Part shown: positions 42,559 through 61,034 of the stretch, piece by piece | Layout: every line of letters starts with the position of its first letter | How positions within the stretch are numbered: the first letter of the stretch is position 1 | Assembly (NCBI RefSeq): GCF_004343075.1 | Contig: NZ_SLXP01000002.1 | Coordinates: 372,001-436,000 of the forward strand | Origin: Rhodovulum marinum | GTDB taxonomy: Bacteria; Pseudomonadota; Alphaproteobacteria; Rhodobacterales; Rhodobacteraceae | Length of the DNA: 64,000 bases | Direction of reading: 5' to 3' | The notes under the pieces: model-generated | The model's input: the letters and a program-made list of their open reading frames with translations, nothing else | Database searches by the model: none | Told to the model about the DNA's origin: nothing | Made by a program: the position numbers and the translations under genes

Positions 42559-44283
42559 ATGAAGAGACTTGCAACCATCCTGCTGCTCGTGATCGCCGCC
42601 GCCCTGCCCGCCGGGGCACAGGATCGGGTCTGGCTTCAGATCGAGGCGCATCCCACGCTGCGCGAAGCCGAGGAGCGCGCCCGCACCTATGCCGGCACAT
42701 TGCCGAATGTCGGCGCCTTCCGGATCGCGTCGGGATGGTATTCCATCGCGCTGGGCCCCTATGCCGAACCCGAGGCGAACGCCGCACTTCGGACGATGCG
42801 CGCACAAGGCGCGATCCCGCGCGACAGCTTCATCTCGGACGGGGCCGATTTCCGCCAGCAGGTCTGGCCCGTGGGCGCCGAACTGCGCACCCCCGTGCCA
42901 ACGGCGACGCCCGCCCCCGAAACCCGGGCCGCGGCCCCCCTTCAACCGCTGCCCGACGAAACCCCGGCCGAGGCACGCCAATCCGAACGCGCGCTCGACC
43001 GGGACGGGCGCGCCCTGATCCAAACCGCGCTGCAATGGGAAGGGTTCTATGCCCAGGCGATCGACGCCGCCTTCGGCCCCGGCACGCGGCGCGCCATGGC
43101 CGATTGGCAGGCCGCGCTGGGATATGAACCGACCGGCGTTCTGACCACGCGCCAGCGCGAGGAGCTGGTCGGCGCCTACCGCGCCGAGATCGCCCGGCTG
43201 GGCATGCAGCCCATCGACGAACGCGAGGCCGGCATCCGCATTGAGATGCCCCTTGGCCTGGTGGAATTCGACCGCTACGAACCGCCCTTCGTGCACTACC
43301 GCGCCAGGGGTGACAGCGGCGTGCGCGCCCTGCTGATCAGCCAGCGCGGCGACCAGGCGACGCTGTACGGGCTGTACGACATCATGCAGACGCTGGAAAT
43401 CGTGCCGCTGGGGGGCACGCGGGAACGGAACACCACGTCCTTCACGCTGGCCGGACAGAACGCGCGGCTGCAATCCTATACCTATGCACGGCTGATCGGC
43501 GGCGCGGTCAAGGGCTTTACCCTGGTCTGGCCGCCCACCGAGGACGAAAAGCTGATGATGCGGGCCGCGATGACGATGCGCGAAACGCTCGATTCGGTGC
43601 CGAACGTCGCGCTGGACGAAACCCTGGGCGAGGCCAGCGCCGACCAGCGCGCCGACATGCTGTCCGGGCTGGAAATCCGCCAGCCCGACGCGACCCACTC
43701 GGGCTTTTTCATCGACGGTGCGGGCACGGTCCTGACCACGACCACCGGGCTGACCGCGTGCAACCGGATCACCATCGGCCACGATGTCGACGTGACGCTG
43801 ACCGCCAGCGACCCGGCGTTGGGGCTGGCGGTGCTGAAACCCTCGGTCGCGCTGGCGCCGATCGAATATGCCAGCTTCCAGGCCCGGGTGCCGCGCCTGC
43901 GCTCGGACGTGGCGGTGGCGGGCTTTTCCTATGGCGAGGTGCTGGACCTGCCGGTGCTGACCTACGGCACGCTTGCCGACCTGACAGGTCTGGACGGCCA
44001 GGACGCCGTCGCGCGGCTGGAGATCGAGGCGCTGCCCGGCGATACCGGCGGGCCGGTGCTGGACGCGGCGGGCGCGGTGCTCGGCGTGCTGCTGGCCCCG
44101 GGGGAAGGCGCGCGCCAACTGCCCCAGAACGTGCGCTATGCCGCCGATGTGGCCGCGATCGGGGCGTTCCTGTCGGCGAACGGCGTCGAGATGCGCACCG
44201 CCGAGGCCGAGGGGGCGCTGCCGCCCGCCGCGCTGACCCGGCGCGCGGCCGACATGACGGTGCCGGTTTCCTGCTGGAACTGA
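42559..44283 (+). CDS. SPOR and peptidoglycan-binding protein with inactive trypsin-like domain
   Basis: A 574-residue exported protein. Order: signal peptide (residues 1-20, AGA/Q), SPOR-like domain (about 22-95, RVWLQIEAHPTLREAE), Pro-rich linker, peptidoglycan-binding domain 1 (about 150-205, FGPGTRRAMADWQAALG), a middle domain, and a trypsin-like double barrel (about 375-550). All three triad positions are changed: Thr396 where LTNAH has His, Gly422 where Asp is expected, and Thr496 in GDTGGP in place of the catalytic Ser. It probably binds septal or denuded peptidoglycan without cutting peptides. It is monocistronic and divergent from glyQ. Confidence 0.78.
   Translation: MKRLATILLLVIAAALPAGAQDRVWLQIEAHPTLREAEERARTYAGTLPNVGAFRIASGWYSIALGPYAEPEANAALRTMRAQGAIPRDSFISDGADFRQQVWPVGAELRTPVPTATPAPETRAAAPLQPLPDETPAEARQSERALDRDGRALIQTALQWEGFYAQAIDAAFGPGTRRAMADWQAALGYEPTGVLTTRQREELVGAYRAEIARLGMQPIDEREAGIRIEMPLGLVEFDRYEPPFVHYRARGDSGVRALLISQRGDQATLYGLYDIMQTLEIVPLGGTRERNTTSFTLAGQNARLQSYTYARLIGGAVKGFTLVWPPTEDEKLMMRAAMTMRETLDSVPNVALDETLGEASADQRADMLSGLEIRQPDATHSGFFIDGAGTVLTTTTGLTACNRITIGHDVDVTLTASDPALGLAVLKPSVALAPIEYASFQARVPRLRSDVAVAGFSYGEVLDLPVLTYGTLADLTGLDGQDAVARLEIEALPGDTGGPVLDAAGAVLGVLLAPGEGARQLPQNVRYAADVAAIGAFLSANGVEMRTAEAEGALPPAALTRRAADMTVPVSCWN

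Positions 44284-58838: not shown

Positions 58839-58839
<1 letters not shown>
58132..58839 (-). CDS. exported FG-GAP/VCBS-type repeat protein
   Basis: A 235-residue exported protein with a signal peptide (residues 1-23, AAA/E). Two calcium-binding FG-GAP-like repeats carry LADLDGDGNPEIIAVE (about 77-92) and GAADLDGDGRVEIAYVD (about 127-143), and two more blades are weaker, which suggests a partial beta-propeller. The role is unknown; relatives act in adhesion or periplasmic scaffolding. The ATG overlaps the ferredoxin stop (TGATG), so the two are translated together, an odd pairing of a periplasmic and a redox protein. Confidence 0.72.
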
Positions 58840-60071
<1,232 letters not shown>

Positions 60072-60086
60072 GTTCTACTCTTGTTC
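60072..60086 (+). promoter_or_regulatory. alphaproteobacterial LexA (SOS) box
   Basis: GTTCTACTCTTGTTC is an exact GTTC-N7-GTTC direct repeat, the LexA site of Rhodobacter-type alphaproteobacteria. It ends 2 bases before the ATG of the dnaE2 fragment. LexA binding would block transcription of this locus until DNA damage. Confidence 0.72.
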
Positions 60087-60088
60087 TG

Positions 60089-60463
60089 ATGGATATGCCC
60101 CGCCCCCGCGACTGGCCCAGGCCGCCTTCCTGTCTGCCGCACGCGATGCTGGACCTGCCGCCGGCAGGCGCGCGGGTGGCGGTGGCGGGGCTGGTGCTGG
60201 TGCGCCAGCGGCCGGGCACCGCCAAGGGGGTGATCTTCGTCACGCTGGAGGACGAGACGGGCGTGGCGAACGTGGTGGTCTGGGCCAAGATGTTCGAGCG
60301 GCATCGCCGGGCGGTGATCGCGGGACGGCTGTTGCGGGTCACCGGGCGGCTGCAGCGCGAGGCGGGGGTGACCCATGTGGTGGCCGAACGGATCGAGGAC
60401 ATTTCCGACATGCTGGACGACCTGCTGCGCCACACGCCCTGCCGCGCCGCCGACCAGCCCTGA
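60089..60463 (+). pseudogene. C-terminal fragment of error-prone DNA polymerase DnaE2
   Basis: A 124-residue open frame whose residues about 20-115 match the C-terminal OB-fold end of DnaE2 ([56 protein letters not shown]). Family DnaE2 proteins are about 1000 residues or more, so some 90 percent, including the polymerase core, is absent. Family knowledge: dnaE2 sits in the SOS-induced imuA-imuB-dnaE2 operon. Here a LexA box lies directly in front of the fragment, as if an internal deletion had fused the operon promoter to the gene end. It may be dead, or a small SOS-induced OB-fold protein. The opening residues ([14 protein letters not shown]) are not DnaE2-like. Confidence 0.75.
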
Positions 60464-60513: not shown

Positions 60514-60568
60514 GGGTTTCGCCTCGCTGCGCGAGGCGACCGGGGGCCGGGGGCTGACGCCCCCGGCC
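60514..60568 (-). repeat. inverted partial copy of a palindromic repeat module
   Basis: GGGTTTCGCCTCGCTGCGCGAGGCG plus the adjoining GGCCGGGGGC hairpin is the reverse complement, with a few changes, of the end of the two direct copies at 60663-60816 and 60882-61034. Confidence 0.75.
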
Positions 60569-60574
60569 CGTTTT
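60545..60574 (+). terminator. terminator-like hairpin after the dnaE2 fragment
   Basis: GGCCGGGGGC and GCCCCCGGCC form a perfect 10-bp stem around TGAC, followed by CGTTTTG. It is also part of the inverted copy of the repeat module described for 60514-61034. Confidence 0.65.
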
Positions 60575-60662
60575 GCCGATGCGACGCCGAGGGCGCCGTG
60601 TGACAAAGCGCGCCGCAGAAAGCGCGGCCAGAGGCCCGCCACGATCATATTGCCCGCGGGAT

Positions 60663-60816
60663 GCCGTCGATGCCCGGCACGCCCCCTCCCCTCGACAGCC
60701 CACAGGACACCCGCCCCGCACTCCCCGGCAAAACTGCCGACCCGCCGCCCCCATGGCCGGGGGCGTCAGCCCCCGGCCCCGGTCGCCCCGGCGCAGCCGG
60801 GGCGAAACCCGAAGGG
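60663..60816 (+). repeat. repeat module, direct copy A (about 154 bp)
   Basis: The copy shares most of its length with copy B (60882-61034). Both contain GGCCGGGGGC...GCCCCCGGCC and CCCCGGCGCAGCCGGGG hairpins and end in GGCGAAACCCGAAGGGA. Such paired palindromes are typical of REP-like intergenic elements. Confidence 0.85.
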
Positions 60817-60881
60817 AAGACCAGACCGACGCAGAACGCGCGACCGGGAACCCGCCACGAGCATCCCGCCCGCCCGACACC

Positions 60882-61034
60882 TCCGATCCCCGGCACGCCC
60901 CCTACGCCTCGACAGCCCGCAGAACACCCGCCCCGAACTCCCCGGAAAAACTGCCGACCCGCCGCCCCCAAGGCCGGGGGCGCCAGCCCCCGGCCCCGGT
61001 CGCCCCGGCGCAGCCGGGGCGAAACCCGAAGGGA
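60882..61034 (+). repeat. repeat module, direct copy B (about 153 bp)
   Basis: The second direct copy starts 219 bp after copy A. Differences are scattered single bases and short indels. The 740 bases between the dnaE2 fragment and the aminotransferase are otherwise without a supportable gene; open frames there are products of the repeats. Confidence 0.85.

What the first reader, a model, noticed from the sequence alone, without database searches (positions are those of the whole stretch)
60072..60463. LexA box joined directly to a dnaE2 C-terminal fragment
Seen: an exact GTTC-N7-GTTC site ends 2 bp before a 124-codon frame whose residues about 20-115 look like the C-terminal OB fold of DnaE2. 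No polymerase core or imuA/imuB is nearby. Known: DnaE2 is the SOS mutasome polymerase under LexA. Inference: an internal deletion fused the SOS promoter to the gene end, leaving either a remnant or a small SOS-induced single-strand-binding OB protein.
Basis: partly seen in the sequence, partly recalled or inferred. Interest (0 to 1): 0.7.

Follow-up and report, generated by a model that had tools for sequence, protein, structure and literature searches.

The report
Damage-response polymerase split into two genes
In this bacterium and many relatives the error-prone DNA polymerase DnaE2, made after DNA damage, appears to be cut into two separately encoded proteins, a main enzyme and a small nucleic-acid-binding piece, each behind its own damage-response switch; the window holds the small piece.

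Summary
In detail: an exact LexA-type box (60072-60086) lies 2 bp before a 124-codon gene (60089-60463) matching only the C-terminal OB domain of error-prone DnaE2. It is not a deletion remnant. The same genome has the rest of DnaE2 on another contig: 977 residues, catalytic motif kept, natural stop just before the OB domain, LexA-like box upstream. imuA and imuB lie at two further loci with boxes. So dnaE2 has undergone gene fission.

In the genus (Rhodovulum by record matching), 8 of 16 genomes have the OB gene and the same 8 the truncated core. In the family at least 102 of 247 other genera show a short OB gene (hand count); I tested 70, and in all 65 with a DnaE2 over the cut-off a core stops before the OB domain. 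The split cores form one clade. The OB gene is under purifying selection and keeps its ferredoxin neighbour (75 of 80 loci) and its box (70 of 80). I infer a two-subunit DnaE2 whose OB subunit is SOS-induced from a leaderless mRNA. Binding and induction are untested. My searches found no report of the split.

The parts
60072..60086 (+). LexA-type operator GTTC-N7-GTTC
   Evidence: exact box in 70 of 80 related loci, 10 same-strand hits in 620,716 bp elsewhere in them
60076..60081 (+). Probable -10 element (TACTCT) inside the operator spacer
   Evidence: Inference: family spacer is TATNTTT with TTG at -18 to -16 from the box; in the window the -35 region reads TTCCCT, a weak match
60089..60463 (+). 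Standalone OB-domain gene of split dnaE2 (124 aa)
60113..60127 (+). N-terminal W-P-R-P-P stretch; W9 and P12 conserved in standalone proteins, candidate docking tail
   Evidence: W9 in 96% and P12 in 99% of the 80 standalone rows, not the common residues in 26 fused ones; docking role is inference
60176..60403 (+). OB fold, residues 30-105
   Evidence: Pfam PF01336 residues 30-105; AlphaFold2 model pLDDT 91.5; PDB neighbours are OB domains
58839..59162 (-). 2Fe-2S ferredoxin gene on the opposite strand: conserved neighbour, not part of the system
   Evidence: found on the opposite strand upstream in 75 of 80 related loci

Best explanation
The gene is one half of a split DnaE2. In one lineage of Rhodobacteraceae the imuA-imuB-dnaE2 SOS cassette is scattered, and dnaE2 has been cut in the linker before its OB domain. 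The core gene (polymerase, fingers, HhH, PLPLF motif) and the OB gene now lie far apart, each with a LexA-type operator. DNA damage relieves LexA, both proteins are made, and the OB protein joins the core in trans within the ImuA-ImuB-DnaE2 mutasome, where it holds single-stranded template. Shown here: fission, co-occurrence, conserved operators, one clade of cores, purifying selection, OB fold (predicted). Inferred: docking, ssDNA binding, SOS induction, mutasome membership, and a leaderless mRNA for the OB gene.
For: Own genome: core matches profile 4-938 and the window gene 948-1039. Genus: the same 8 of 16 genomes have both halves. Family: 65 of 65 tested genomes with a short OB gene and a DnaE2 over the cut-off have a core ending at 938-978; of 59 such genomes without a clear short OB gene, 53 reach position 1039 or beyond. 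Boxes: OB genes 27 of 28 exact, cores 26 of 28 with at most one mismatch, fused dnaE2 1 of 26. Split cores are one side of a branch, SH-aLRT 99. dN 0.116 and dS 0.47 for the OB gene, 0.120 and 0.49 for the core. PDIDxD in 28 of 28 cores. Divergent G048 and G105 keep both halves.
Against: G059 and G079 have a truncated core and no convincing OB match, G066 has an OB gene and no core: the halves are separable in a few genera. The OB tree alone does not show one origin. Core boxes are mostly one mismatch off (17 of 28) and a box with at most one mismatch occurs in 492 of 4,000 random 190-bp windows. Split halves lack the C-terminal [RK][DN]F[HR] tail of all 26 fused proteins. No interaction, expression or mutagenesis data.
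Confidence: 0.78

Rival explanations
1. The OB gene descends from DnaE2 but has become an independent SOS-induced ssDNA-binding or regulatory protein that no longer works with the polymerase; the truncated core works without an OB domain.
For: G066 keeps the OB gene without a core, G059 and G079 the core without an OB gene. PMC3919608 reports that several DnaE2s lack the OB domain (passage). Standalone proteins have lineage-specific conserved residues.
Against: The tight co-occurrence in genus and family, equal constraint on both halves and LexA-type boxes on both are expected of parts of one enzyme.
Confidence: 0.18
2. A non-functional remnant left by an internal deletion in dnaE2.
For: The short frame begins at an SOS box and holds only the gene's end.
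Against: The core is intact elsewhere; at least 102 other genera have a short OB frame; purifying selection; conserved neighbour and box.
Confidence: 0.01
3. Assembly or frameshift artefact of an ordinary fused dnaE2.
For: Such cases exist in the sample: G560 is a frameshifted fused gene, and G024 is best read as a fused gene cut by the ends of one contig.
Against: The halves are 0.75 Mb apart on one contig in G008 and 1.34 Mb in G010, with different neighbours and separate boxes, in many independent assemblies.
Confidence: 0.01

Closest known systems
ImuA-ImuB-DnaE2 mutasome (LexA-controlled imuA-imuB-dnaE2 cassette)
   Same: Same polymerase family, ImuA and ImuB homologues in the genome, LexA-type boxes
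   Different: Genes scattered over four loci and DnaE2 itself cut in two. A split cassette is known (PMC3919608, passage); a split DnaE2 I did not find in print
DnaE2 sequences that lack the OB domain (PMC3919608, passage seen)
   Same: The core gene here would be such a sequence
   Different: The missing domain is encoded elsewhere in the genome; the passages I saw do not say so
Cyanobacterial DnaE split by an intein (mentioned in a passage of PMC3919608; details recalled)
   Same: A C-family polymerase encoded by two genes
   Different: Cyanobacterial halves are rejoined by an intein (recalled); the gene ends seen here carry no intein-like extension, so the halves should stay two proteins
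Single-stranded DNA-binding protein SSB (PF00436)
   Same: OB fold
   Different: Only a weak match, E 0.011 and below the curated cut-off; DnaE2 OB is much closer

Membership tests
DnaE2 (error-prone C-family polymerase), core gene at G000:C15 | Profile match over the curated cut-off and polymerase catalytic motif | tested here: met
   NF004225 1246.7 bits, cut-off 939; PDIDVD at 406 of 977, PDIDxD in 28 of 28 split cores
DnaE2 (error-prone C-family polymerase), core gene at G000:C15 | OB domain in the same chain | tested here: not met
   Match ends at 938 of 1047; the OB part is the window gene
DnaE2 (error-prone C-family polymerase), core gene at G000:C15 | C-terminal [RK][DN]F[HR] tail seen in fused DnaE2 | tested here: not met
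   26 of 26 fused end so; 0 of 28 cores and 0 of 28 standalone OB proteins
ImuA-ImuB-DnaE2 mutasome | imuA and imuB homologues in the genome | tested here: met
   ImuB-like Y-family protein and ImuA (NF033429 E 9.7e-11 but 41.9 bits against a cut-off of 150)
ImuA-ImuB-DnaE2 mutasome | LexA-type operator on each gene | tested here: met
   Boxes upstream of lexA, imuA, imuB, core (one mismatch) and OB gene in G000; LexA binding itself not tested
ImuA-ImuB-DnaE2 mutasome | Contiguous cassette | tested here: not met
   Four loci in G000: C5, C15 at 82 kb, C15 at 40 kb, C2
ImuA-ImuB-DnaE2 mutasome | Physical complex and damage-induced mutagenesis | not testable with these tools
   The structure tool predicts single chains only; no assay
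SSB (PF00436) | Match over the curated cut-off | tested here: not met
   16.3 bits against 26
Intein-split DnaE | Intein halves at the broken ends | tested here: not met
   By eye on the 28 core ends and 28 OB proteins: cores run from about 2 to 50 residues past ...HP..LLR...LTP, no intein-sized extension; no intein profile was run on them apart from the Pfam and NCBIfam scans of the G000 genes

The most novel reading that the evidence does not exclude
DnaE2 in much of the Rhodobacteraceae is a two-subunit polymerase. Its OB domain is a free, separately SOS-induced subunit (leaderless mRNA, W-P-R-P docking tail) that completes the mutasome by joining core and template in trans, so that OB supply becomes a control point for induced mutagenesis.
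Probability: 0.45. Interest if true: 0.85.

Novelty: new variant of a known kind. Interest (0 to 1): 0.72.

Why it matters
A family-wide fission of a DNA polymerase into unlinked, separately LexA-controlled genes seems unreported in what I could search. It offers a natural experiment on what the OB domain of C-family polymerases does: the domain can be deleted or titrated on its own, in tractable roseobacters; Dinoroseobacter shibae, identified here by record length, appears to carry both a split chromosomal DnaE2 and a fused plasmid cassette. It also warns that domain-based surveys will read these cores as polymerases without an OB domain.

Tried and rejected
Remnant by internal deletion: rejected, since the core is intact elsewhere. 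Assembly artefact: rejected, since the halves are 0.75 and 1.34 Mb apart on single contigs in G008 and G010. An independent split outside the family: the one short-frame candidate on a single-contig genome (G560) has its DnaE2 in several frames and I read it as a frameshifted fused gene. G024 looked split, but the pieces lie at the two ends of one contig and I read it as fused across a circular junction.

Phage origin: 1 weak hit (39% identity) in 50,697 phage records. The first AlphaFold2 job, with 6 sequences, failed at pLDDT 45; the second, with 63, gave 91.5. A PDB profile search gave 5 weak hits, best 5fku_A (Pol III alpha) at E 0.012. A first ferredoxin-motif search used a wrong pattern and found 3 of 80; tblastn found 75 of 80. 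The box is not significant within the window alone. The OB tree could not confirm a single origin: 2 changes, 1 forced, 23% of bootstrap trees with 1.

Rows dropped or not tested: L170 (frame 982) left out of the standalone set, so 79 of 80, plus the window; G560 left out of trees and tail counts. Of 102 other genera with a short OB frame, 32 were not tested for the core; of the 145 others, 65 were not tested. Boxes before imuB were looked at in 6 of the 8 split genomes of the genus. The 80 named loci are the best 80 of 557 relatives and so lean to close ones. Counts were made by hand from printed rows; one search did not print its weakest rows. In one search (176 of 385 genomes matched, weakest rows not printed) outside the family some short frames sit at contig ends and a few mid-length frames (for example 504 aa in G321, 650 in G456) were not inspected.

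Full report
Observation. The box GTTCTACTCTTGTTC (60072-60086) and the 124-codon frame 60089-60463 are as described. The protein matches NCBIfam NF004225 (error-prone DNA polymerase) only at positions 948-1039 of 1047, E 5.3e-32, and Pfam PF01336 (OB fold), E 3.2e-12. An AlphaFold2 model from a 63-sequence alignment is a confident OB barrel (mean pLDDT 91.5, pTM 0.82); its best PDB neighbours include OB domains of AspRS and AsnRS, RPA and Stn1.

The missing part is in the same genome. Searching the window's own assembly with the DnaE2 profile gives three places: a DnaE2 over the cut-off covering 4-938 (contig C15, 1247 bits), a weaker match that I read as replicative DnaE1 (C9, 575 bits), and the window gene (C2, 948-1039). 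The C15 gene is 977 aa, has the polymerase, finger and HhH domains by Pfam, with a PHP match below its cut-off, and the PDIDVD motif. It ends with a natural stop after ...HPVALIRHRLTPGFANGPPRSTEAPKTTAAH. In a fused DnaE2 the same place reads ...HPLELLRPRLVGSLPHDRLAGASGRVTVTGLVITRQRPG...; the OB gene reads ...[29 protein letters not shown].... Together the two genes cover the fused protein to the end of the OB domain but not its C-terminus: 26 of 26 fused DnaE2s end in [RK][DN]F[HR]; 0 of 28 split cores and 0 of 28 standalone OB proteins do.

Genus. Three same-genus handles have contigs of the same length as named Rhodovulum records (66,709, 428,635 and 224,994 bases; R. tesquicola, R. kholense, R. 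visakhapatnamense), so the window is most likely from Rhodovulum (inference). Of 16 genomes, 8 have the standalone OB gene (the 7 besides the window's at 79-89% identity) and the same 8 have a truncated core. Two of the 8 (G014, G015) have a full-length DnaE2 as well; 5 have only a full-length one, and G003 among these also has a core fragment with stop codons; 3 have neither, though G001 has an N-terminal DnaE2 fragment at a contig edge. In G008 the halves lie at 1.09 and 1.84 Mb of one contig, in G010 at 1.48 and 2.83 Mb.

Family. Of 248 genomes, one per genus, 212 match the OB protein at E 1e-10 or better. By hand count of the printed rows at least 102 of the 247 others have it in a short frame (under 450 aa); most other printed rows are frames above 1,100 aa. 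I ran the DnaE2 profile on 70 of those 102: 65 of 70 have a DnaE2 over the cut-off, and in all 65 there is one that ends at 938-978, several of the longer ends reading past a stop codon; G050 has a full-length one in addition. The other five are G173 and G083 (core fragments ending at 941 and 938), G076 and G133 (fragments only in the printed rows) and G066 (listed 100% complete, no DnaE2 core). I also ran it on 80 of the 145 genera without a clear short OB gene: 59 of 80 are over the cut-off, and 53 of these reach position 1039 or beyond. The six others are G100 (OB in the same frame, so fused), G093 (contig fragments), G105 and G048 (truncated core, and a divergent short OB gene at 35% and 44% identity), and G059 and G079 (truncated core, no convincing OB match down to E 5). 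Across 385 alphaproteobacterial genomes (176 matched) the strong short-frame matches are in this family; outside it, short frames among the printed rows sit at contig ends or, in G560, in a frameshifted gene, and a few mid-length frames were not inspected.

Regulation. In the own genome, boxes of the GTTC/GAAC-N7 direct-repeat type lie upstream of lexA, imuA, imuB, the core (one mismatch, GAACAAAACGTGAAT) and the OB gene. Over 28 OB genes 27 have an exact box within 160 bp and 28 one with at most one mismatch; over 28 cores 9 exact and 26 with at most one; over 26 fused dnaE2 0 exact and 1 with one mismatch. Random 190-bp windows of these loci give 100 of 4,000 exact and 492 of 4,000 with at most one. 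In 80 named loci, 70 have an exact box against 10 same-strand hits in 620,716 bp elsewhere in them. In 50 of these 70 the first in-frame start codon is exactly 2 bp after the box, in 64 of 70 it is 1-5 bp after; the spacer is TATNTTT by majority and TTG stands at -18 to -16. With -35 and -10 placed there, transcription would begin at or next to the start codon; so I infer a leaderless mRNA under LexA. The window has the 2-bp spacing but a weak -35 (TTCCCT).

imuA and imuB. In the split genomes of the genus ImuB homologues (51-57% identity to the cassette ImuB; in G005 in two pieces on two contigs) lie apart from dnaE2; of 6 of these looked at, 5 have an exact box at or near the start and 1 a box with one mismatch. 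ImuA homologues (36-47% identity) lie elsewhere, 8 of 8 with an exact box. So the cassette is scattered over four loci in G000. Of the 7 fused dnaE2 genes in the genus 6 lie directly behind an imuB; that of G015 does not.

Evolution. In a tree of 54 cores (28 split, 26 fused, quick method) the split cores are one side of a branch with SH-aLRT 99, with the other alphaproteobacterial families on the fused side; this fits a single fission. The OB tree is too short to confirm it. Median dN and dS among the 8 genus members are 0.116 and 0.47 for the OB gene, 0.120 and 0.49 for the core: constrained, and to the same degree. The locus is syntenic: 75 of 80 loci have a 2Fe-2S ferredoxin gene upstream on the opposite strand. 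Standalone proteins share W9, P12, R74 and D110 at 96-99%, which are minority residues in 26 fused OB domains; a W-P-R-P tail particular to the standalone form is a candidate docking element (inference).

Mechanism. Most likely the two products reassemble as a two-subunit DnaE2 in the ImuA-ImuB-DnaE2 mutasome after SOS induction, the OB subunit holding single-stranded template. Fission, co-occurrence, operators, predicted fold and selection are shown; binding, ssDNA contact and induction are inferred. G059, G079 and G066 leave room for a core that works alone and for an OB protein with a role of its own.

Literature. Searches: (11 papers; 18, 15 listed; 0; 4; 100, 15 listed, none relevant by title; 20, 15 listed; 1; 13, 10 listed), in open-access PMC papers only. 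[quoted passage not shown] the passages I saw mention no separate OB gene. PMC12926913, a 2026 survey (abstract, sections 14 and 19 whole, passages), describes 11 mutasome types; it places ImuB contacts on the PHP and HhH regions of DnaE2, and its three uses of split concern the DnaE1/DnaE3 groups and ImuB. Passages of PMC6473078 list predicted LexA sites in D. shibae; dnaE does not occur in its main text, so it neither supports nor excludes the boxes described here. Passages of PMC10883770 and PMC9426580 give an imuB-dnaE2 operon in P. inhibens and an imuA-imuB-dnaE2 cassette on the 126-kb plasmid of D. shibae. G050 has a 126,304-base contig, the length of D. shibae plasmid NC_009957.1, so D. 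shibae probably carries both forms. Supplementary files were not read, so a mention there is not excluded.

Noticed in passing
window 60526-61034: GC-rich interspersed repeats right after the gene: a 136-nt direct repeat (60682-60817 and 60899-61034, 93%, spacing 217) and an inverted copy of its palindromic part at 60526-60568.
   Followed up: partly
window 59163-60071: The gap between ferredoxin and OB gene is about 900 bp in the window, against about 125-275 bp in most related loci listed (one of those printed is near 1,940), so an insertion or expansion lies here.
   Followed up: no
window 42766-42780 (-): A second exact GTTC-N7-GTTC match, inside long open frames; the number in the window is at the chance rate.
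   Followed up: no
G003:C3:177867-178385: A piece of DnaE2 core with a TGA and a TAG in a genome that has a full-length DnaE2 and no OB gene: looks like a decayed split core.
   Followed up: no
L201, L202, L203 (G059, G079, G066): Exceptions to the pairing: truncated core without a found OB gene (G059, G079) and OB gene with exact box and ferredoxin neighbour but no core (G066).
   Followed up: partly
L228, L248, L268 (G050): Genome matching D. shibae by plasmid length has a split chromosomal DnaE2 and a fused one on a 126-kb contig.
   Followed up: partly
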